From an uncultured Porphyromonadaceae bacterium (GTDB lineage Bacteria > Bacteroidota > Bacteroidia > Bacteroidales > Muribaculaceae), in NCBI GenBank assembly GCA_947177185.1, contig CAMWTJ010000020.1, positions 1 through 34,306 of the forward strand: DNA of 34,306 nt. The letters run 5' to 3'. A program made the position numbers and the translations under genes. How positions within the stretch are numbered: position 1 is the stretch's first letter; the number at the start of each line of letters is the position of its first letter. Below the pieces are notes generated by a model. That model ran no database searches. It was not told the origin of the DNA and was given only the letters and a program-made list of their open reading frames with translations. Positions 6,292-24,750 of the stretch are shown one piece after another.

Positions 6292-7803
6292 TTAGTCGTC
6301 GATATCGTCGGGTCCTGTTTCTCCTATGAATCCGCGTCCGAGGCGGCTCACCAGGTTGCGCAGTCCCTCGAAGCGGCTCTTGCCTGTGGCCGTGTCCTTG
6401 CCGTCGTAGTCGGCGTCGTCGTCATCGTCCATGTCTTCGGTGGTTTCGGGCTCTTGGCGGCGTATTTTTTTCTTGTCGCGGCGGCGTGCGGGTGCGTTTT
6501 CCTCCTCGAAGTCGTCGGGGTCGTCGTCGAGCACGCTTTCGTCGTCGAGCTCGGCACCGCGGCGTGCGCGCGCCGATGCCGCCGCCCTGCGGGGGTCGTA
6601 GGGGTCGTAGTCGGCATCGTCGGCTGTGTCGTCGGCCACAGCGGCCGTGGCCGGCTCGGTGAGGTCGCTGTCGACACATCCGGCGGGCCATGCTGCGAGT
6701 GCCATGATGTCGATGTCGGCCACGGGTGTGGCGCCGGTGGCGCCGGGGCGCACGCTGTTGTCGGCGGTGGCCAGGCGCACCTTCATCTTGGTCTGCGCGG
6801 CAAAGAGGTCGGCCATGCGTCGCATCTGCGCTCCGCGGCCGGTGAGCACTATGCCTGCGCCGAGTTCCGAGAGCTTGAATCCGGCGCTCTCTATGCGGTG
6901 CAGCACGTTGGCTATGATTTCGCCGGCGCGCGCCTGCGTGTAGGCGTTGATTTCGCGTGCGTCGGGAGTGGTGGCGTTGCTGTCGGTGTCGGCCATGGCC
7001 GAAGCCTGCGCGCACTTGATGTATTCGGCCTGCTCCTCGGTCACGCCGAGTGCGGCGGCTATGTCGCGCGTGATGTTGCGGCTGCCCATGGGGAGTGTGA
7101 CGGCCACCAGCGCCGTGCCGTCCTTGTGTACGCTTACGGTGGTGGTTTCGGCGCCGAGGTCCACGAGCGCCACTCCGAGCTGCTGCTCCGAGGGCGTCAG
7201 TGCCATGCGCGCCAGGGCCAGCTGCCGGGGCACGTACACGCGCTCTACGCGTGCGGCTTCGGGGCGGCTCTCCACGGCGGTGGCCACGCGCTCGAGGTTG
7301 GTGCGGTTGTCGGGCGAGCACAGCAGCACGGTCATGTCGGCGTGGATGTTGCGTCCGAAGATTCCCACGGCGTTGCTCACGGCGGCCCCGTCGACGTTGA
7401 AGCCCCGCGGCAGCACTGCCATCACCTGCCTGTCGGCGGGCAGTCCCATCACGGCGTCGCGTTTGAGTCTTTCCACTATCTCGGCGGTGATTTCCACCTC
7501 GGCCGGCAGTGTGGCCTCGGCCTCGGCCGCCACACTGGCCATGGAGCGTCCGCCCAGGGCAATGCGCACGCGCCGCACGCGCCGCGGTGCCACTGCAGGG
7601 TCGTTTTCGAGGCGTCGGAGCACCTCGTCGACGCGCGAGGCCACTTCCTGCACGTTCTGCACGCGTCCGTGCCGCACGCAGTTGATGGTCTTGACTTCGT
7701 GTGTGGCCACGAGTGTGGCTCCGCCGTCGCTGTCCACGCGTGCCACGGCGCCTTTCACCTTGCTGCTGCCGATTTCGAGAACGGCTATGTATCGGGCATC
7801 CAT
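6292..7803 (-). CDS. ftsA: Cell division protein FtsA
   Basis: Predicted 503-residue actin-like ATPase that tethers FtsZ to the membrane. Actin-fold motifs are phosphate-1 IGSSKVK (11-17), phosphate-2 DLGAETTTVSV (215-225) and the adenosine loop VLTGRGAQM (319-327). The SHS2/1C region lies between, around residues 85-165. Residues about 378-475 form a strikingly acidic, low-complexity spacer with runs of Asp, followed by an amphipathic helix RFEGLRNLVSRLGRGF (477-492) that fits the membrane-targeting sequence. FtsA proteins are typically around 420 residues, so the spacer accounts for the extra length. It sits 22 nt after ftsQ. Confidence 0.95.
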   Translation of the reverse strand: MDARYIAVLEIGSSKVKGAVARVDSDGGATLVATHEVKTINCVRHGRVQNVQEVASRVDEVLRRLENDPAVAPRRVRRVRIALGGRSMASVAAEAEATLPAEVEITAEIVERLKRDAVMGLPADRQVMAVLPRGFNVDGAAVSNAVGIFGRNIHADMTVLLCSPDNRTNLERVATAVESRPEAARVERVYVPRQLALARMALTPSEQQLGVALVDLGAETTTVSVHKDGTALVAVTLPMGSRNITRDIAAALGVTEEQAEYIKCAQASAMADTDSNATTPDAREINAYTQARAGEIIANVLHRIESAGFKLSELGAGIVLTGRGAQMRRMADLFAAQTKMKVRLATADNSVRPGATGATPVADIDIMALAAWPAGCVDSDLTEPATAAVADDTADDADYDPYDPRRAAASARARRGAELDDESVLDDDPDDFEEENAPARRRDKKKIRRQEPETTEDMDDDDDADYDGKDTATGKSRFEGLRNLVSRLGRGFIGETGPDDIDD

Positions 7804-7825
7804 TGTGTATGTCTGGTTTTGAGTA

Positions 7826-8695
7826 TTAATTGCTGTAGGCGTCGTCGGGAACGATGCCGTTGTTGGGTGCGTTGGGGTCGACGCCCTGCACGGTTTCGAG
7901 GTCGGCGGCGTCGTTGTATTCTTCTTCGGCCACGGCCAGCTGCACGGGTGTGAGGCGTCCGTGGCGGCGTGTGGCCACCACCTGCCCGCGCCATTTGACG
8001 CTGACGGTGTCGTAGCTGTCCCATCCGCGCACGGCCGGCACGGAGGTGTAGAAGCGCCGCAGGCGGGCGAATTTGTCGGCCGTGTCGGTGGTGTCGCCGA
8101 AGTTTATCACATGGCCGCGCATGGCGGGCACGATGATGATGTCGCCGTCAGGCTCGCTGACCACGGTGCTCACCAGCGCGTCGAGCTCGGCGTGCGAGGC
8201 TATGTGGCGCAGCAGCGGCAGCAGCCGCGACGCGGGGTACGCTTCCGAAAACGCGCCGCACACCACGGGCACGTCGATGTGGAAGCGCGCTTCGGCGCCT
8301 ATGCTCTTGCCCTCAGCGTTGATGTAGTAGGAGCGTCCGGCGGCGCCGTCGAACACTCTGGCCACGGGCACCATGGGCACTACGTCGATGGCCAGCGAGC
8401 CGTCGTTGAGCAGGGCCACGTTGGCGCTTTCTATCTTGTCGGAGGCCAGGAGGGCGCGCTCCATGGCCGAGATGCTGACGGAGCAGCGCGGCGCGCCGGA
8501 GGCGGCTGCGGTGGCGAATTCGCGTGCGATGTCGTCGCGGGTGATGAAGCCCGTGTGCATGGAGTCGGCCACGGCTATGCGCACGCCGGCCACAGGGCTG
8601 CGTGAGGCGCTGCCGGCCGAGAGCGGCAGGGCGAAAGCCAGGTAGACTATCAGGACCACCGAACAGGCGCAGAGTATTACGGAGCGTTTCGACAT
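7826..8695 (-). CDS. ftsQ: Cell division protein FtsQ/DivIB
   Basis: Predicted 289-residue bitopic division protein. A short cytoplasmic stub (MSKR) precedes one transmembrane helix (about residues 5-24), then a periplasmic POTRA-like region (SMHTGFITRDDIAREF) and a beta domain ending in WRGQVVATRR. FtsQ bridges the Z-ring side of the divisome to FtsL/FtsB and the FtsWI synthase. The assignment rests on topology plus its position between murC and ftsA, because sequence conservation is low in Bacteroidetes FtsQ. The C-terminus carries an acidic, probably disordered tail (EEEYNDAADLE onward). It starts 39 nt after murC. Confidence 0.85.
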   Translation of the reverse strand: MSKRSVILCACSVVLIVYLAFALPLSAGSASRSPVAGVRIAVADSMHTGFITRDDIAREFATAAASGAPRCSVSISAMERALLASDKIESANVALLNDGSLAIDVVPMVPVARVFDGAAGRSYYINAEGKSIGAEARFHIDVPVVCGAFSEAYPASRLLPLLRHIASHAELDALVSTVVSEPDGDIIIVPAMRGHVINFGDTTDTADKFARLRRFYTSVPAVRGWDSYDTVSVKWRGQVVATRRHGRLTPVQLAVAEEEYNDAADLETVQGVDPNAPNNGIVPDDAYSN

Positions 8696-8734
8696 AGTGA
8701 TGTGCCGGCGGATGCGGGCTTGGGGATGAGGAGG

Positions 8735-10123
8735 TTAGACAGGTCGGCCGTTGATTTCTTCCACCAGCCGGGGCAGCAGCAGACTCATGTCGCCGGCGCC
8801 ACAGGCCAATAGAATGTCAAAGTTACGATTTTTCAGCCACTCTACCAAATCGGTCTTCGCCACGAGGTGTTTGTCGGGCGTGCGCACCTGCCGCAGTATC
8901 AGGCCGGAGTCCACGCCGTCGATGGGCAGCTCGCGCGCCGGATAGAGGTCGGTGAGCACCACGCGGTCGGCCTGGTCGAGGGCCGAGGCAAACTGTGCGG
9001 AGAAATCGCGCGTGCGTGTGTACAGGTGGGGCTGGAACGCCACGGTGAGGTGACGCCCGGGGTAGAGCGCGCGCACGGAGGCTATGCTGGTGCGCAGTTC
9101 GTCGGGGTGGTGGGCGTAGTCGTCGATCACCACGTGGCCGCCCTCGGGCTCCTTGAGCAGAAACTGGAAGCGCCGCTCGCTGCCCAGGTAGGAGGCCATG
9201 GCGCGGCGTGCGGCGTCGGGCTCGAGGGAGCCTGTGAGCCAGCATGCGGCCAGGGCGGCTATGGCGTTGTCGATGTTGATCTGCACGGGCACGCCGAGCT
9301 CTATGCCGTCGATGCGGCCGCCGGGGTGCACGAAGTCGAACACGATGGTGCCGTCGGCCACGCGTATGCGCTCGGCATGGAAATCGCCTTCGTGGCGCGA
9401 GTAGGAGTAAACGCTCACGCCCGGTGCGGTGCGCGGGCGCATCTTCAGCCCTGTGTGGGCCACCAGGGCGCCGCCGGGGCGTATCAGTTCGGTGAAGTGC
9501 GCGAAGCTCTCGAGGTAGGCCTTTTCGGTGCCGTATATGTCGAGATGGTCGGGGTCGGTGGCGGTGACCACGGCTATGTGCGGGTGCAGGTGGTGGAAGG
9601 AGCGGTCGTACTCGTCGGCCTCCACCACGGTCCAGGGCGAGGCGGGGGCGAGCAGCAGGTTGCTGTCGTAGTTGCGCAGTATGCCGCCGAGGAAGGCGTT
9701 GCAGCCGCACGCGCAGTTGTGCAGCACGTGGGCGGCCATGGACGATGTGGTGGTTTTGCCGTGCGTGCCGGCGAAGCACAGCGCGCGGCTGCCGCCGGTG
9801 ATGACGCCGAGAGCTTCGGCGCGTTTGACCACGCGGAATCCGCCTTCGCGGAAATAGCGCATCAGCGCCGAGTCCTGCGGCACGGCGGGCGTGTAGACCA
9901 CGAGTGTGGAGGCGGCGTCGCGGAAGGCCTGCGGCACGGCTTCGGCGGGCGAGTCGGTGTAGCTCATGGCCACGCCTTCGGCCGCCAGGCGCGCAGTGAG
10001 GTCAGACGGCGTGCGGTCGTAGGCCGCCACCTCTTTTCCCTGCGAGAGAAAATAGCGCTCGAGAGCGGCCATGCCTATGCCTCCGCCGCCCACGAAATAT
10101 ACTCGGTTGAATTCTTTTCCCAT
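8735..10123 (-). CDS. murC: UDP-N-acetylmuramate--L-alanine ligase
   Basis: Predicted 462-residue cytoplasmic Mur ligase adding L-Ala to UDP-MurNAc, the first amino acid of the peptidoglycan stem peptide. The N-terminal Rossmann motif VGGGGIGMAAL (11-21), the ATP P-loop GTHGKTTTS (119-127), the VVEADEYDRSF segment and the C-terminal DDYAHHPDE are all diagnostic for MurC. Length is normal. It lies 34 nt after murG and 39 nt before ftsQ in the dcw run. Confidence 0.96.
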   Translation of the reverse strand: MGKEFNRVYFVGGGGIGMAALERYFLSQGKEVAAYDRTPSDLTARLAAEGVAMSYTDSPAEAVPQAFRDAASTLVVYTPAVPQDSALMRYFREGGFRVVKRAEALGVITGGSRALCFAGTHGKTTTSSMAAHVLHNCACGCNAFLGGILRNYDSNLLLAPASPWTVVEADEYDRSFHHLHPHIAVVTATDPDHLDIYGTEKAYLESFAHFTELIRPGGALVAHTGLKMRPRTAPGVSVYSYSRHEGDFHAERIRVADGTIVFDFVHPGGRIDGIELGVPVQINIDNAIAALAACWLTGSLEPDAARRAMASYLGSERRFQFLLKEPEGGHVVIDDYAHHPDELRTSIASVRALYPGRHLTVAFQPHLYTRTRDFSAQFASALDQADRVVLTDLYPARELPIDGVDSGLILRQVRTPDKHLVAKTDLVEWLKNRNFDILLACGAGDMSLLLPRLVEEINGRPV

Positions 10124-10157
10124 ATGCTGAAAAAACTGACGTCTGAAGCGTGGCGCG

Positions 10158-11282
10158 TCAGGCGTCGCTGTGCTGTTTGGTGTTGAATATGATTTGTTCG
10201 GCTATGTCTACTATGCGGTCGGCGCTGTCGGGCAGTGCCATGGCGGCTATGGCGCGGCTCATGGCGCCGCGCCGTGCGTCGTCGGCGAGCAGTGCTGTCA
10301 CCGCCGGCACCAGCTGCGTGTCGGCGTCGGCGTCGTCCACCATCACGGCCGCGTCGCGTGCCACCAGTGCCATCGCGTTCTTGCGCTGGTGGTCTTCGGT
10401 GACGTTGGGCGAGGGCACGAGCACTGTCGCTTTTCCGAGCAGCTGCAGCTCGCTGATGGAGCCTGCGCCTGCGCGCGACACCACCAGGTCGGCGGCGCGG
10501 TAGGCCACGTCCATGTCGCTTATGAATTCCGTGGCGCGTGCGTTCGGGTTTCCGGCCGTGGCAGCGGCGGCGAGTTCCGTGTCGCGTCGGCCGGTCTGCC
10601 ACAGCAGCGATGCGCCGGCGCCGGTGATGGCGTCGACTCCGGCGGCTATGGCGCGGTTGACGGTGGTGGCGCCGAGGCTGCCGCCCACCACGAGCACGAG
10701 CGGCCTCTCGGGGTCGAAGCCGAGCCGGCTCCTGGCCTCGGCGGGTGTGAGCGCGCAGTCGAGCAGCGACGCGCGCACGGGGTTGCCCGTAAGGTGTATG
10801 CGGTCGGCCGGGAAGAAGCGCTCGGTGCCTTCGTAGGCCACGCATATGGCGCGTGCCTTTTTGCCCAGCAGCTTGTTTGTGACGCCGGGGTAGCCGTTCT
10901 GTTCCTGAATGAGAGTGGGCACTCCGAGGCGCTGCGCGGCCTTGAGCGTGGGTCCGCTGCAGTAGCCTCCCACGCCTATCGCTATCTGCGGGCGGAAGTC
11001 GCGCACGGTGCGCCGTGCCTTGCGCATGCTCTTGCAGAGCAGCCACAGGGTGCGGAAATTGCGCCACAGACGCTTGCGGTCGAATCCGGCCACGGGCAGG
11101 CCTACGATGGGGTAGCCTGCGGCAGGCACGCGCTGCATTTCCATACGGTCGTCGGCTCCGACGAAGAGTATGTCGACGTCGGGGTAGCGCCGGCGCAGCG
11201 CTCCCGCAATGCTCAGTGCGGGGAATATGTGGCCGCCGGTGCCGCCGCCGCTTATGATCACTCGTTCTATTTTCTGTTTCAT
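10158..11282 (-). CDS. murG: Lipid II synthase, undecaprenyl-PP-MurNAc-pentapeptide GlcNAc transferase
   Basis: Predicted 374-residue GT28 glycosyltransferase that transfers GlcNAc to lipid I on the cytoplasmic membrane face, making lipid II. The N-terminal loop SGGGTGGHIFPALSIA is the MurG signature, and IGVGGYCSGP, LIQEQNGYPGVTNK and GGSLGA follow in the expected order. The C-terminal domain carries SRAGAGSISELQLLGKATVLVPSP, the UDP-GlcNAc-binding region. Length is normal. It starts 44 nt after ftsW. Confidence 0.96.
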   Translation of the reverse strand: MKQKIERVIISGGGTGGHIFPALSIAGALRRRYPDVDILFVGADDRMEMQRVPAAGYPIVGLPVAGFDRKRLWRNFRTLWLLCKSMRKARRTVRDFRPQIAIGVGGYCSGPTLKAAQRLGVPTLIQEQNGYPGVTNKLLGKKARAICVAYEGTERFFPADRIHLTGNPVRASLLDCALTPAEARSRLGFDPERPLVLVVGGSLGATTVNRAIAAGVDAITGAGASLLWQTGRRDTELAAAATAGNPNARATEFISDMDVAYRAADLVVSRAGAGSISELQLLGKATVLVPSPNVTEDHQRKNAMALVARDAAVMVDDADADTQLVPAVTALLADDARRGAMSRAIAAMALPDSADRIVDIAEQIIFNTKQHSDA

Positions 11283-20312: not shown

Positions 20313-20355
20313 AGACGATTGTATCTACCGGTGCTTTTTGCGTGTTTTGGGCTCT

Positions 20356-20363
20356 CAAAGTTA
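20356..20363 (-). promoter_or_regulatory. -7 element of the rsmH/dcw promoter
   Basis: On the minus strand this reads TAACTTTG, an exact match to TAnnTTTG. The predicted transcript start near 20350 gives a leader of about 38 nt before the rsmH ATG (20312). No clean TTTG is present at the -33 position; that position is occupied by the inverted repeat at 20376-20387. Confidence 0.55.
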
Positions 20364-20375
20364 GTCAAAAATTAT

Positions 20376-20409
20376 GTAAAAATTTACGACTAAAAATAAA
20401 AAAATTTAC
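20376..20409. promoter_or_regulatory. Candidate operator: inverted repeat plus direct repeat in the divergent promoter region
   Basis: GTAAA-AA-TTTAC (20376-20387) is a perfect inverted repeat. Its core AAAAATTTAC (20378-20387) recurs exactly at 20400-20409, a repeat distance of 22 bp, or about two helical turns. The first copy overlaps the -33 position of the dcw promoter, and the second lies just upstream of the frc -33 element. A shared binding site for a regulator is an inference; the surrounding DNA is very A/T-rich, so chance is a real alternative. Confidence 0.35.
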
Positions 20410-20423
20410 AATTGCAAATATTT

Positions 20424-20453
20424 TTTGCTTTGCAGCTCCCGCCCCGAACTTTG
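20424..20453 (+). promoter_or_regulatory. Candidate promoter of the oxalate operon
   Basis: TTTG (20424-20427), an 18-nt spacer and GAACTTTG (20446-20453) fit the Bacteroidetes TTTG / TAnnTTTG promoter with one mismatch in the -7 box. Predicted transcription starts near 20460, giving a leader of about 70 nt before the frc ATG. The leader is A-rich near the start codon and has no Shine-Dalgarno sequence. Confidence 0.45.
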
Positions 20454-20528
20454 CCGCGGCCCGCGGCGTTTTAATTTATACTGAAAAAAGCATAGGAAAA
20501 CACCAAAATTCACTTAAAAATCCAGATT

Positions 20529-21848
20529 ATGAATACCGCTCCTCTCCAAGGTATCAAGGTGGTCGATTTCACGGAAGTGCAGTCCGGCCCCTCGTGCACG
20601 CAGATGCTGGCATGGCTCGGCGCCGAAGTTGTGAAAATCGAACGTCCCGGCGTGGGCGACGCCACGCGCGGCGAACTCCAGTTCGACCCCTCCCTGCCCA
20701 GCTACTACTATCTGCAGCTCAACAGCAACAAGAAATCGCTGACACTCGACGCCAAGACTCCCGACGGCAAGGAGATACTCACCCGGCTCATCAAGGACTG
20801 CGACATATTCGTGGAAAACCTTCACCCGGGTGCCATGGACAAGCTGGGATTCAGCTGGGAGGCCGTGCACGCACTCAATCCGCGCTGCATCTACGGCACT
20901 ATCAAGGGCTTCCCGCTCTCGTCGAAATACGCCGACCTCAAGGCCTACGAGCCCATAGCGCAGGTGACGGCCGCCGCCGCGTCCACCACGGGATGGTTCG
21001 ACGGCGACTACAACATACCCACGCAGAGCGGCGCCGCCCTGGGCGACTCCAACACGGGCATGCACCTGCTCATAGGTCTGCTCGCGGCGCTGCAGCAGCG
21101 CTCGCACACAGGCGAGGGTGTGTACGTGTACCAGTCGATGCACAACGCCTGTCTTAACCTCTGCCGCATCAAGACGCGCGACCAGCTCACGCTCGACAAA
21201 GTGGGCTATCTCACGCAGTTCCCGCAGTATCCCGACGGCAAGTTCGGCGACTGTGTGCCACGCTCGGGCAACACCGAAGGCGGAGGCGTGCTCGGATGGA
21301 CCTACAAGTGCAAGCCCGCAGGCGGCTACGACACCGAAGTGGACGCCAACAACTATGTCTACATCATACTGCAGCGCGGCGCCAAGGATTTCGAGGCCGC
21401 ATGCAAGGCCATGGGCTTCGAGGACTGGCTCACCAACCCCGACTTCAACACCGCCGACGCCCGCGACCGCCACAAACAGGACATCTACAAGCGCATCGGC
21501 GCATGGACGGCCGACAAGACCAAATTCGAGGTCACATCGATACTCGGCCCCGCCGGCGTGCCCGTAGGCCCCGTGCTCTCCACCAAGGAGGTGATGACCG
21601 ACGAGAGCCTCTACGACGGCAATACGCTCGTGCGCATCAACCAGGGCGGCAAGATAGGCGAGTACGTCACAGTGGGCTGCCCCTTCACCATGAGCAATTA
21701 TCAGCCCGCCTACGGTCCGGCTCCCGAACTCGGCGCCGACACGGCATCCGTGCTCACGGCACTCGGCTATACCTCCGAGCAACAGGCTGCCTTCGCAGCC
21801 AACGGCACCACGGCGCCCATGCCCAAGACCGCCGATACTAAAAAATAA
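20529..21848 (+). CDS. frc: Formyl-CoA:oxalate CoA-transferase
   Basis: Predicted 439-residue class III CoA-transferase that moves CoA from formyl-CoA to oxalate, giving oxalyl-CoA and formate. It is close to Oxalobacter Frc throughout: LQGIKVVDFTEVQSGPSCTQM at the N-terminus (Q18 matching active-site Gln17), KAYEPIAQ (Y140 matching Tyr139) and catalytic Asp D173 in SGAALGDSNTGMH. The active-site glycine loop reads SGNTEGGGVLG (247-257) where Oxalobacter and E. coli YfdW have GGGGQPG, so one loop Gly is Glu and QP is VL. Length is near normal. It heads the operon, 15 nt before oxc. Neighbour oxc makes this Frc rather than another class III transferase. Confidence 0.93.
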   Translation: MNTAPLQGIKVVDFTEVQSGPSCTQMLAWLGAEVVKIERPGVGDATRGELQFDPSLPSYYYLQLNSNKKSLTLDAKTPDGKEILTRLIKDCDIFVENLHPGAMDKLGFSWEAVHALNPRCIYGTIKGFPLSSKYADLKAYEPIAQVTAAAASTTGWFDGDYNIPTQSGAALGDSNTGMHLLIGLLAALQQRSHTGEGVYVYQSMHNACLNLCRIKTRDQLTLDKVGYLTQFPQYPDGKFGDCVPRSGNTEGGGVLGWTYKCKPAGGYDTEVDANNYVYIILQRGAKDFEAACKAMGFEDWLTNPDFNTADARDRHKQDIYKRIGAWTADKTKFEVTSILGPAGVPVGPVLSTKEVMTDESLYDGNTLVRINQGGKIGEYVTVGCPFTMSNYQPAYGPAPELGADTASVLTALGYTSEQQAAFAANGTTAPMPKTADTKK

Positions 21849-21863
21849 AAAACAAGACACACA

Positions 21864-23594
21864 ATGGCTACCGCAACTACAAACACCAAGCCTCAGTTTC
21901 CCGCGCAGGTCACGGGCATGTACATACTGGCACAGGCTCTGAAACGCCTCGGACTCAACGATGTGTACGGCCTCGTGGGCATCCCGGTCACCGAAGCTGC
22001 CTACGCGATACAGAAAATAGGCCTCAACTACTACGGCTTCCGCTTCGAGCAGCAGGCGGGCATGGCCGCCGCCACCCACGGCTTTCTCACCAAGAAGCCG
22101 GGCGTGCTGCTCACGGTGTCGTCGCTCGGTTTTCTGAATGGACTCACCGCCACGGCCAACGCTACGGTCAACTGCTACCCGATGATTCAGATATCCGGCG
22201 CCAGCGACCCGCATATGGTCGACATGGACATGGGCACCTACGAGCAGCTCGACCAGCTCAACACGGCTCGCCCGCTCGTAAAGGCGGCCTTCCGCTGCAG
22301 CCACGCCAAGGACATACCGCAGGCGCTGGCACGCGCATACCGCGCGGCCGTCAGCGGCCGTCCGGGCGGCGTGTATATTGACATGACCACCCCCGCCCTG
22401 GCCGAGATAATGGACGCCGACGAGGCCGAGAAACTGCTCTACGAACCCGTCGACGTGTACTCGCCCGTGGCCCCGAACGCCGAGGCCGTGGAACGCGCCG
22501 CCGCGCTCATAGCCGGCGCCCGGCGCCCGGCTGTGCTGCTCGGCAAGGGAGCTGCCTACGCGCAGGTCGACGACAAAATACGCACCCTCGTCGAGAAATA
22601 CAAGCTGCCCTATCTGTCCATGTCGATGGCCAAGGGCCTGCTGCCCGACGCAGGCCCGCTGAGCGCGCTGTCGTGCCGCAGCACCATCATGGAGCAGGCC
22701 GATGTGGTGGTGGTGATAGGCGCGCGCATCAACTGGATGCTGTCGTTCGGCCGCGGCAAGTGGAATCCGGCCGTGAAGTTCGTGCAGCTCGACGTGGAGC
22801 CGCGTGAGATGGACCGCAATGTGCCCGTGGCCGCACCCGTGGTGGGCGACATGGGCCTCGCGCTCGACGCGCTGCTGAGCGCGCTGGCCGGCCGCACCAT
22901 GGCGGCCGACCCCGCATGGCTCGCCTCGCTGCAGGCCGAGAGCAAGACCAAGAACGCACGCTTCGCCACACGCCTTGCCGACGCCGCCGGCGCGCAGCCC
23001 ATGAACCACTGGAGCGCCATCGGCGCCATCAAGCCCGTGCTGGAGGCCAACCCCGACGTGATACTCGTCAACGAAGGCGCCAACACGCTCGACGACACGC
23101 GCGACAGCGTGGACATGTCGCTGCCCCGGCACCGCGTGGACTGCGCGTCGTGGTCCATCATGGGCATGGGCATGGGCTCGGCCATAGGCGCAGCCGTGGC
23201 CACCGGCAAGAGCGTGGTGGCCGTGGAGGGCGACTCGGCCTTCGGCTTCTCGGGCATGGACTTCGCCACCATATGCCGCTACAAGCTGCCTTGCACGGTG
23301 GTGGTGTTCAACAACGGCGGCATCTACAACGGTGTGGGCCAGAACCCCTCCGGCGGCGATGCGCCCGCTCCCACCACGCTCGATATCGACGCCCGCTACG
23401 ACAAGCTCGGCGACGCTTTCGGCGCGCAGACCTTCTATGTCACCACTCCCGCCGAGCTCACGCAGACGCTGTCCGAGGCCATAGCCTCGCGCAAGCCGTG
23501 TCTGATTAACGTGCAGCTCGCCGCCGACTCGGGCGCCGAGAGCGGCCATATAGGCTACCTCAACCCGACGCCGCTTATCCAATACAAAGTATAA
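21864..23594 (+). CDS. oxc: Oxalyl-CoA decarboxylase
   Basis: Predicted 576-residue ThDP-dependent enzyme that decarboxylates oxalyl-CoA to formyl-CoA and CO2. The N-terminal domain has DVYGLVGIPVTEAAY and E62 in FRFEQQAG (ThDP-activating Glu). GTYEQLDQLN carries the Tyr-Glu pair seen in the Oxalobacter active site (GDYEEMDQ). Further on are AVSGRPGGVYIDM, LLGKGAAYAQ and AKGLLPD. The ThDP/Mg motif is VEGDSAFGFSGMDFATICRY through FNNGGIYNG, nearly identical to Oxalobacter Oxc, and the C-terminal AESGHIGYLN contains the active-site Ser region. Length matches the family (about 568). It follows frc after 15 nt; the C/A-rich gap CAAGACACACA lacks a Shine-Dalgarno sequence. Confidence 0.96.
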   Translation: MATATTNTKPQFPAQVTGMYILAQALKRLGLNDVYGLVGIPVTEAAYAIQKIGLNYYGFRFEQQAGMAAATHGFLTKKPGVLLTVSSLGFLNGLTATANATVNCYPMIQISGASDPHMVDMDMGTYEQLDQLNTARPLVKAAFRCSHAKDIPQALARAYRAAVSGRPGGVYIDMTTPALAEIMDADEAEKLLYEPVDVYSPVAPNAEAVERAAALIAGARRPAVLLGKGAAYAQVDDKIRTLVEKYKLPYLSMSMAKGLLPDAGPLSALSCRSTIMEQADVVVVIGARINWMLSFGRGKWNPAVKFVQLDVEPREMDRNVPVAAPVVGDMGLALDALLSALAGRTMAADPAWLASLQAESKTKNARFATRLADAAGAQPMNHWSAIGAIKPVLEANPDVILVNEGANTLDDTRDSVDMSLPRHRVDCASWSIMGMGMGSAIGAAVATGKSVVAVEGDSAFGFSGMDFATICRYKLPCTVVVFNNGGIYNGVGQNPSGGDAPAPTTLDIDARYDKLGDAFGAQTFYVTTPAELTQTLSEAIASRKPCLINVQLAADSGAESGHIGYLNPTPLIQYKV

Positions 23595-23597
23595 CCC

Positions 23598-23687
23598 GCG
23601 GTGGCGGACGGCGGCAGAAGCCGGGCCTAAGGCTGCCGCTGAGGAGCCATGGGTGTCCCACCCCTTCTGCCGTCCGCCCACCTCCGC
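23598..23687 (+). other. Structured intercistronic element between oxc and the AEC carrier
   Basis: A long imperfect inverted repeat fills the 107-nt gap. CAGAAG (23615-23620) pairs with CTTCTG (23664-23669), CGGACGG (23605-23611) with CCGTCCG (23670-23676), GTGG (23601-23604) with CCAC (23678-23681), and GCG (23598-23600) with CGC (23685-23687), with CGG and single-C bulges. Within the 43-nt loop, GGGT (23651-23654) and ACCC (23660-23663) can form a second hairpin. No T-tract follows (CAAAACTCTAAAAA), so it is not a canonical intrinsic terminator. It could set the oxc/carrier expression ratio, be an RNA-processing site, or be a dispersed palindromic repeat. Confidence 0.7.
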
Positions 23688-23701
23688 CAAAACTCTAAAA
23701 A

Positions 23702-24673
23702 ATGCTACACGTCATACTATACGCCATAGTCCCGATAGTGGTGGTGATGCTCGCGGGATTCATAGCCGGCAAAAAGGGAGCCTTCAGCGGCGACGACGCC
23801 AAGAAATTCAACAAAGTGGTGCTTGACTACGCACTGCCCGCGGCCCTGTTCGTATCCATCGTGCAGGCCAGCCGCGAGGACCTGGTCAAGGACCTCAAAC
23901 TCACCCTCGTATCGCTCATAGGCATCATGGGCTGCTTCATGCTTGTCTATTTTGTGTTCAGATACTGTTTTAAGAAAAACACCGGCGCCGACGCCGCCGT
24001 GTCGGCCCTGATCAGCGGCTCGCCCACCATAGGCTTCCTCGGATTCGCCGTGCTGGAGCCTATCTTCGGCACCACGCCCGCCGTGGCTCTCGTGGTGGCC
24101 ATCGTGGGCATCGTGGTCAACGCCGTGGGCATCCCCGTGGGCCTTTCGCTCATGAACGCCTCCCTGGAGGCGCAGACACCCGGCAGCGGCACGCGGGAGA
24201 GCGCCTGGAAACCCGTGCTGCACGCTCTCGAGCAGCCGGTGGCGTGGGCGCCCATCCTGGCCGTGGTGCTGGTGGTGTGCGGCCTGCGTTGGCCGGCTTG
24301 GGCATCGCCCTCGTTCGACCTCATAGCCAAGGCCAATGCCTCAATGGCCGTGTTCTCGGCCGGCATCACACTCAGCTCCATAAAGTTCACCTTCAACATG
24401 CAGGTGCTCTGGGGCGCCGTCATGAAGATGGTGCTCATGCCGCTGGTGGTGCTCGTGCTCGGACTGCTGTTCCATATGGACCCCCTGAACCTCAAGATGC
24501 TTGTCGTGGCCGCCTCGCTGCCGCCAGCCTTCTCCGGCATCATCATTGCCGACGAATACAACCAGTATGTGGCCACAGGCACCTCGTCGCTTACTCTCAG
24601 CGTGATTCTCTTCGTGGGCTTCTGCCCGCTGTGGATATGGCTCACCGACGTGGCCCTGCACAGCTTCGCCTGA
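23702..24673 (+). CDS. AEC-family carrier, probable oxalate and/or formate transporter
   Basis: Predicted 323-residue polytopic inner-membrane protein of the auxin efflux carrier (AEC) family, with about ten hydrophobic helices. Family marks are the first helix (ILYAIVPIVVVMLAGFIAGKKG), the YALPAALFVSIVQ segment, the glycine-rich SGSPTIGFLGFAVLEPIFG, and the last pair of helices with ASLPPAFSGIIIADEYN. Characterised AEC members include malonate and malate carriers, so a dicarboxylate fits. Its place as third gene of the frc-oxc operon, before the terminator, makes oxalate uptake, possibly coupled to formate export, the natural inference. It is unrelated to the MFS antiporter OxlT of Oxalobacter. 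No independent promoter was recognised. Confidence 0.85.
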   Translation: MLHVILYAIVPIVVVMLAGFIAGKKGAFSGDDAKKFNKVVLDYALPAALFVSIVQASREDLVKDLKLTLVSLIGIMGCFMLVYFVFRYCFKKNTGADAAVSALISGSPTIGFLGFAVLEPIFGTTPAVALVVAIVGIVVNAVGIPVGLSLMNASLEAQTPGSGTRESAWKPVLHALEQPVAWAPILAVVLVVCGLRWPAWASPSFDLIAKANASMAVFSAGITLSSIKFTFNMQVLWGAVMKMVLMPLVVLVLGLLFHMDPLNLKMLVVAASLPPAFSGIIIADEYNQYVATGTSSLTLSVILFVGFCPLWIWLTDVALHSFA

Positions 24674-24700
24674 CGGCCTGAACACACCCGCCTGAAAATG

Positions 24701-24740
24701 CAGGAAAGAGAGCGGCACATGCTCTCTTTCCTGTTTTTTT
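24701..24740 (+). terminator. Intrinsic terminator of the oxalate operon
   Basis: A perfect 13-bp stem (CAGGAAAGAGAGC at 24701-24713, GCTCTCTTTCCTG at 24721-24733) with a 7-nt loop GGCACAT is followed by seven T. This is a textbook intrinsic terminator 28 nt after the AEC carrier stop codon. Confidence 0.93.
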
Positions 24741-24742
24741 CG

Positions 24743-24750
24743 TACATTTG
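24743..24750 (+). promoter_or_regulatory. -7 promoter element for the TPR-like secreted protein
   Basis: TACATTTG matches TAnnTTTG exactly and begins two bases after the terminator T-tract. Predicted transcription starts near 24757, almost at the ATG (24760), so the mRNA would be leaderless or nearly so. No -33 TTTG is present because that position is occupied by the terminator stem. Confidence 0.5.

What the first reader, a model, noticed from the sequence alone, without database searches (positions are those of the whole stretch)
20529..24740. Complete oxalate-degradation operon with an AEC carrier in a Bacteroidales genome
Frc and Oxc together convert oxalate to formate and CO2 with catalytic CoA, and their active-site residues are present (Frc D173; Oxc E62, Tyr-Glu pair, GDSAFGFSG). 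The third gene is an AEC-family carrier, not the MFS oxalate/formate antiporter OxlT known from Oxalobacter. If the AEC protein moves oxalate, it is a different transport solution, and whether it exchanges oxalate for formate (and so conserves energy) is open. Oxalate genes are known from genome surveys of some Muribaculaceae; the carrier's role and energetics are the less described part.
Basis: partly seen in the sequence, partly recalled or inferred. Interest (0 to 1): 0.72.

Follow-up and report, generated by a model that had tools for sequence, protein, structure and literature searches.

The report
Gut bacterium's oxalate-eating operon with carrier
This gut bacterium carries a three-gene set that very likely imports oxalate and breaks it down to formate and carbon dioxide; the same set is already known from E. 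coli and from this bacterium's own family, but close relatives of its carrier also sit beside a quite different oxalate-destroying enzyme, which makes oxalate the carrier's likely cargo.

Summary
Confirmed: frc (20529-21848), oxc (21864-23594) and an AEC-family carrier (23702-24673), co-directional, followed by a strong terminator (24700-24734).

Not new: the order is that of E. coli K-12 frc-oxc-yfdV (52/51/50% identity), and Ormerod 2016 already reported a permease beside oxc in all 19 oxalate-degrading genomes of this family. In 397 family genomes, 216 of 218 with oxc have this carrier; one lacks it beside an intact oxc, the other is cut by a contig end.

What I add: of the 80 best carrier relatives in named genomes, 67 lie just 3' of oxc and 9 just 3' of OxdC, an unrelated, CoA-free oxalate decarboxylase. 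None of 20 distant AECs does. The clade has its own signature (SPT[IV]GFLG[FY]A, PPAFSG). Oxalate and formate are what the two enzyme systems share, so oxalate is the best-supported cargo.

Oxalate/formate exchange is plausible: no OxlT, FNT channel or pyruvate formate-lyase was found in the window's genome. It is unproven, as about half of the oxc genomes carry an FNT channel. Structure prediction never ran.

Verdict: known operon type, with new enzyme-independent evidence for its carrier's substrate.

The parts
20529..21848 (+). frc, formyl-CoA:oxalate CoA-transferase, 439 aa, D173
   Evidence: TIGR03253 563 bits, cut-off 504; best solved relative 1pqy YfdW
21864..23594 (+). oxc, oxalyl-CoA decarboxylase (TPP enzyme), 576 aa
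   Evidence: NF006721 775 bits, cut-off 557; TIGR03254 730.6, cut-off 739.4; best solved relative 2q27 oxalyl-CoA decarboxylase
23603..23678 (+). hairpin-forming spacer between oxc and the carrier, no T-run; role unknown
   Evidence: inverted repeat; -53.5 kcal/mol, z -4.2; one copy in the window
23702..24673 (+). AEC-family carrier, YfdV-type clade, 323 aa; proposed oxalate importer, possibly oxalate/formate exchanger
   Evidence: PF03547; best NCBIfam model NF007384 YfdV at 329 bits, under its cut-off 404; clade and signature
24700..24734 (+). intrinsic terminator closing the operon
   Evidence: 15-pair stem and T-run; -29.2 kcal/mol for 24690-24745, z -7.2

Best explanation
A three-gene oxalate operon of the yfdW-yfdU-yfdV type. 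The AEC carrier brings oxalate in. Frc makes oxalyl-CoA from formyl-CoA and oxalate and frees formate. Oxc decarboxylates oxalyl-CoA to formyl-CoA and CO2, using up a proton. Most likely the same carrier also lets formate out in exchange, which would move charge as OxlT does, but on the unrelated AEC fold. Shown here: the genes, their order, co-occurrence, common clade and signature, and association with two unrelated oxalate-to-formate enzymes. Inferred: that the cargo is oxalate (about 0.85) and that formate is the counter-ion (about 0.45).
For: Frc and Oxc identified. Carrier present in 216 of 218 family genomes with oxc and absent from 166 of the 179 without a strong oxc match; directly 3' of oxc in 79 of 81 fetched loci that show oxc. 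Of 80 best relatives in named genomes 67 lie just 3' of oxc and 9 just 3' of OxdC, against 0 of 20 distant AECs near either. In 13 loci frc is inverted, distant or not in the locus while oxc and carrier stay together. One Klebsiella has both kinds of locus, each with its own carrier. Window's genome: one AEC, no OxlT-type, no FNT, no PFL.
Against: No transport was measured. The carrier is below the YfdV model's cut-off. G221 has intact frc-oxc and no carrier. L157 and L121 carry the carrier with neither enzyme found, and Acetobacter pomorum has frc-oxc-yfdE without a YfdV-type carrier beside it. Against exchange: FNT channels are commoner in oxc genomes, 115 of 218 against 43 of 179.
Confidence: 0.72

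Rival explanations
1. The carrier imports oxalate by H+ or Na+ symport or as a uniporter, and formate leaves separately: through an FNT channel, as diffusing formic acid, or by being used in the cell.
For: A strong FNT match (E <= 1e-40, my limit) is in 115 of 218 oxc genomes against 43 of 179 others, and PFL, the usual source of formate, is rare, 16 of 397. Most AECs lack an established mechanism (recalled).
Against: 103 of 216 oxc-plus-carrier genomes have no strong FNT and 71 have no FNT match at all; the window's own genome has none. Within its genus there is no association, 25 of 40 against 5 of 9.
Confidence: 0.38
2. The carrier only exports formate (or takes another small carboxylate) and oxalate enters by an unknown route.
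For: Formate is the other compound that the Oxc and OxdC systems share. Other AECs lie in citrate lyase, malic enzyme and malonate decarboxylase loci, so the family's cargo varies.
Against: No other oxalate carrier of a known kind was found in the window's genome. Oxalate is a dianion at neutral pH and needs a carrier (established knowledge).
Confidence: 0.1
3. The operon serves acid tolerance rather than feeding: decarboxylation uses up protons.
For: E. coli yfdW and yfdU are needed for oxalate-induced acid protection, with a secondary role for yfdV (PMC3720670, passages).
Against: Nothing measured here separates the two uses, and they can coexist. The single CoA-transferase of this family in the genome leaves no YfdE; YfdX was not searched for.
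Confidence: 0.25

Closest known systems
E. coli K-12 frc-oxc-yfdV-yfdE (yfdXWUVE)
   Same: Same three genes in the same order and strand; 52, 51 and 50% identity; carriers share the signature
   Different: No YfdE-type second transferase in the window's genome; E. coli has yfdX, yfdE and EvgA control (PMC3720670)
Muribaculaceae (S24-7) oxalate genes of Ormerod 2016, PMC4936053
   Same: frc, oxc and a permease adjacent to oxc in all 19 of 30 genomes that have the pair (passages)
   Different: The passages do not name the permease's family; no OxdC link is mentioned in them
OxdC-carrier pairs (L108-L112, L115, L127, L134, L140)
   Same: Same carrier clade and signature, gene just 3' of an oxalate-to-formate enzyme
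   Different: The enzyme is a bicupin decarboxylase that needs no CoA (TIGR03404)
OxlT of Oxalobacter
   Same: Same proposed job: oxalate in, formate out
   Different: MFS family (recalled), not AEC; no TIGR04259 match in the window's genome
MdcF-type malonate carriers
   Same: AEC family, gene placed after a decarboxylase of a small dicarboxylate
   Different: About 29% identical; lacks SPT..A, PPAFSG, K38, R58 and N212

Membership tests
Frc/Oxc oxalate pathway | Frc above curated cut-off | tested here: met
   TIGR03253 563.1 against 504.2
Frc/Oxc oxalate pathway | Oxc above curated cut-off | tested here: inconclusive
   NF006721 774.7 against 557 (met); TIGR03254 730.6 against 739.4 (not met); only 102 of 397 family genomes pass the latter
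Frc/Oxc oxalate pathway | Oxalate turned into formate and CO2 | not testable with these tools
   needs enzyme assay
yfdXWUVE operon | Order frc-oxc-yfdV on one strand | tested here: met
yfdXWUVE operon | yfdE present | tested here: not met
   only one CoA_transf_3 gene, frc itself, found in the genome
yfdXWUVE operon | yfdX and EvgA control | not tested
   neighbours are MraW methylase and a TPR protein; no YfdX or EvgA search made
AEC family (PF03547) | Pfam gathering score | tested here: met
   172 bits against 25.7
AEC family (PF03547) | Ten-helix crossover fold | not tested
YfdV equivalog (NF007384) | Score over curated cut-off | tested here: not met
   329.1 against 404; the two OxdC-linked carriers scanned pass, 450 and 444
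YfdV-type clade as defined here | Falls with E. coli YfdV apart from other AECs and bears the signature | tested here: met
OxlT (TIGR04259) | MFS oxalate/formate antiporter gene in the genome | tested here: not met
   no match at E <= 0.001 in the own genome
Oxalate/formate exchanger (function) | Counterflow of oxalate and formate | not testable with these tools
   needs proteoliposomes

The most novel reading that the evidence does not exclude
The YfdV-type AEC clade is a dedicated oxalate/formate exchanger: a second, independently evolved OxlT on the AEC fold. It has been passed between two unrelated decarboxylase systems (CoA-dependent Oxc and cupin OxdC) because only the substrate/product pair matters to it, and it makes oxalate breakdown energy-yielding in many gut bacteria that lack OxlT.
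Probability: 0.4. Interest if true: 0.72.

Novelty: new member of a known kind. Interest (0 to 1): 0.42.

Why it matters
Dietary oxalate adds to kidney-stone risk, and this bacterial family is common in animal guts. If the carrier is an oxalate/formate exchanger, oxalate breakdown would earn these bacteria energy, and one motif would mark oxalate transport in Bacteroidota, Enterobacterales, Alphaproteobacteria, Bifidobacterium and others. The pairing with OxdC gives a substrate argument that does not rest on Frc/Oxc and supplies extra test proteins for a carrier (YfdV) that has no assigned substrate.

Tried and rejected
A different carrier elsewhere in the genome: no OxlT-type, no second AEC and no FNT found; the genome is 91% complete, so absence is not certain. 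FNT as obligatory formate exit: not supported, about half of the oxc genomes lack a strong one; but its family-wide enrichment is not explained by PFL, which is rare. A single switch to OxdC: the tree wants two (0 of 200 bootstrap trees has one), yet the AU test does not reject one (p 0.145), so I claim only at least one. The oxc-carrier hairpin as a repeated element: one copy in the window; the three nearest relatives have shorter, weaker spacers, though some others fold as strongly per base; set aside. Carrier and oxc inherited as one block within the family: only weakly (r 0.32). A fold comparison was never reached.

Limits of the counts: one search uses lists that I copied by hand (totals 296, 230 and 219 agree with the tallies). 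The oxc limit E < 1e-100 and the FNT limit E <= 1e-40 were set by me after seeing the scores; one weak carrier match (G152, 9.7e-4) was dropped. With weak FNT matches counted too, the figures are 147 of 218 against 72 of 179. Of the 13 carrier-only genomes I saw the place in 8: six have a partial oxc just 5' of the carrier and two end within 200 bases of it; for three of the six the contig end is inferred from the cut reading frame; the other 5 I did not see. The 83 genomes were chosen by me and include the 30 top-scoring oxc hits. The 80 named loci are the best 80 of 407, found through two motifs of the clade itself, so they are no random sample and the motif is partly built into them. The 167 rows include near-copies and some genomes twice. 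Trees used 91 and 31 rows; near-copies were left out by hand, and L096-L099 fell out of the 91-row tree through a slip in id formatting (L096, L098 and L099 are in the 31-row tree). The 20 controls come from one class. Of 68 plasmid records matched, 25 were listed and I looked at 8.

Full report
What is there. The window holds frc (20529-21848), oxc (21864-23594) and an AEC-family carrier (23702-24673), all on the + strand. Frc and Oxc match curated families; their best solved relatives are 1pqy (YfdW) and 2q27 (an oxalyl-CoA decarboxylase). Oxc misses one of two Oxc models, TIGR03254, by 9 bits; only 102 of 397 family genomes pass it. A 15-pair stem with a T-run follows the carrier, so the three genes read as one operon. 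The spacer before the carrier holds a stable predicted hairpin without a T-run. Upstream, in the opposite direction, lies a cell-wall cluster: MraW methylase, FtsL-like, a penicillin-binding protein, a Mur ligase and an MraY-like gene.

Organism. The window's genome is G000, 2.23 Mb in 82 contigs, 91% complete. Contigs of three genomes of its genus have the same length as named public contigs: G229:C2 and JAGATX010000002.1 (168,940) and G274:C72 and JAGANS010000040.1 (61,645), both titled Muribaculaceae bacterium; and G297:C13 and CAMWKV010000013.1 (27,470), titled uncultured Porphyromonadaceae bacterium. I take the family to be Muribaculaceae; this is inference.

It is a known arrangement. 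E. coli K-12 has frc-oxc-yfdV-yfdE in the same order, at 52, 51 and 50% identity to the three window proteins. The best curated model of the carrier is 'transporter YfdV', below its cut-off. For this bacterial family, Ormerod 2016 (PMC4936053, passages) found frc and oxc in 19 of 30 genomes and a permease beside oxc in all 19, not found in those lacking the pair, and proposed it as the oxalate importer. Lagkouvardos 2019 (PMC6381624, passages) lists oxc and frc among family-specific functions. E. coli YfdV has no known substrate: 'unassigned' in PMC3720670 (passages), 'uncharacterized' in a table of PMC10971958 (passage). A putative oxalate transporter of Bifidobacterium animalis rises with frc and oxc in stationary phase (PMC10057886, passages); I could not check that it is the same protein.

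Conservation. In 397 family genomes, 216 have both oxc (E < 1e-100) and the carrier, 2 oxc only, 13 carrier only, 166 neither. Of the 2, G230's oxc runs off its contig at the carrier's side, while G221 (79% complete) has no carrier behind an intact oxc and no match elsewhere. Of the 13, the 8 whose place I saw have oxc cut or lost at a contig end (see limits). In loci fetched from 83 genomes, oxc is seen in 81, the carrier lies directly 3' of it on the same strand in 79, and all three genes stand in a row in 77; the exceptions are contig ends except G221.

A second oxalate enzyme with the same carrier. A scan of named genomes with seven carriers found 407 relatives and kept the best 80. In 67 the carrier lies within about 340 bases 3' of oxc on the same strand. 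In 13 of these (Bifidobacterium, Eggerthellaceae, Sutterellaceae) frc is inverted, distant or not in the fetched stretch, yet oxc and carrier stay together. In 9 others the gene just 5' of the carrier is OxdC, a bicupin oxalate decarboxylase: four were scanned and score 506-518 bits against a cut-off of 254, and the other eight are 47-97% identical to that of L109. They come from Klebsiella, Cedecea, another enterobacterium, Brucella gallinifaecis, Xanthobacter, two Ancylobacter, Pseudochelatococcus and Ignatzschineria. Klebsiella sp. BIGb0407 has both an frc-oxc-carrier locus (L098) and an OxdC-carrier locus (L109). Oxc is a TPP enzyme and OxdC a manganese cupin (established knowledge); what they share is oxalate in, formate and CO2 out. 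The remaining 4: two Bacteroides genomes have a true oxc elsewhere, one of them with a second carrier beside it; in the genomes of L157 and L121 neither enzyme was found.

Controls. In 289 Alphaproteobacteria, apart from the query gene itself, every listed match is at most 30% identical (weaker matches not listed). Of 20 such AECs fetched with flanks of about 4-5 kb, 0 lie near oxc or OxdC; 2 lie within a few kb of a 29-30% CoA-transferase. In the tree of 91 rows the 71 oxalate-type rows stand apart from the 20 controls (SH-aLRT 99); the controls have long branches, so their inner placement is unsure. On plasmids, AECs about 25-33% identical to clade members sit in citrate lyase, malic enzyme and malonate decarboxylase loci. 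Against a universal rule: an Acetobacter pomorum plasmid has frc-oxc-yfdE with no YfdV-type carrier adjacent; the nearest AEC, 5 kb away, is about 31%.

Signature. Over 167 clade rows and 20 controls, T109 is in all and in 0 of 20 (19 have N); A116 in all and in 1 of 20 (19 have P); P275 and S278 in all and in 0 of 20; N212 in 99% and 0 of 20; K38 in 99% and 2 of 20; R58 in 95% and 1 of 20. K242 is in 91% and in 20 of 20, so AEC-wide. The OxdC-linked and orphan carriers that I aligned share the two motifs; the malonate-, malate- and citrate-linked AECs do not, though the citrate-linked one keeps R58. The clade's P108-T109 aligns with a Pro-Asn pair of plant PIN8; that this lies in the crossover substrate site is recalled, not shown here.

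How it probably works. Oxalate enters through the carrier, Frc and Oxc turn it into formate and CO2 with catalytic CoA, and formate leaves. Whether one protein does both is open. For exchange: no OxlT-type gene, FNT channel or PFL was found in the window's genome, and 103 of 216 oxc-carrier genomes lack a strong FNT. Against: a strong FNT is commoner in oxc genomes, 115 of 218 against 43 of 179, though not within the window's genus, 25 of 40 against 5 of 9. These counts are not corrected for kinship.

Novelty. The operon is a new member of a known kind. The pairing of the same carrier clade with OxdC is what I did not find in print; the searches were in one open-access library, so subscription papers (for example Turroni 2010, not held) are not covered.

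Noticed in passing
L070 (G284:C27), about 7328-10336: Two oxc copies in tandem, seemingly in one open frame of 1042 aa.
   Followed up: no
80 family loci with all three genes (some genomes twice): oxc type and carrier type track each other only weakly (r 0.32; all four combinations of two oxc and two carrier types occur: 31, 27, 17, 5), as if cassettes had exchanged parts.
   Followed up: partly
window 20313-20528: The operon stands head to head with the mraW-ftsL-PBP-Mur ligase-mraY cluster, without mraZ in between; mraW was found next to frc in no other fetched locus.
   Followed up: no
window 23603-23678: Stable hairpin without T-run between oxc and the carrier; stability of the spacer varies among relatives.
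   Followed up: partly
L200 (Klebsiella variicola plasmid NZ_CP103421) and L201 (Cetobacterium somerae plasmid NZ_CP092522): Whole oxalate cassettes on plasmids; the Klebsiella one is typed as conjugative and carries yfdX-frc-oxc-yfdV-yfdE next to evgA and a sensor-like gene.
   Followed up: partly
397 family genomes: FNT-type channels are common in the family (219 of 397 with any match) although PFL is rare (16 of 397); what they carry is unclear.
   Followed up: no
L157 (Parasutterella muris) and L121 (Desulfovibrionaceae MAG): Signature-bearing carriers in genomes where neither oxc nor OxdC was found.
   Followed up: partly
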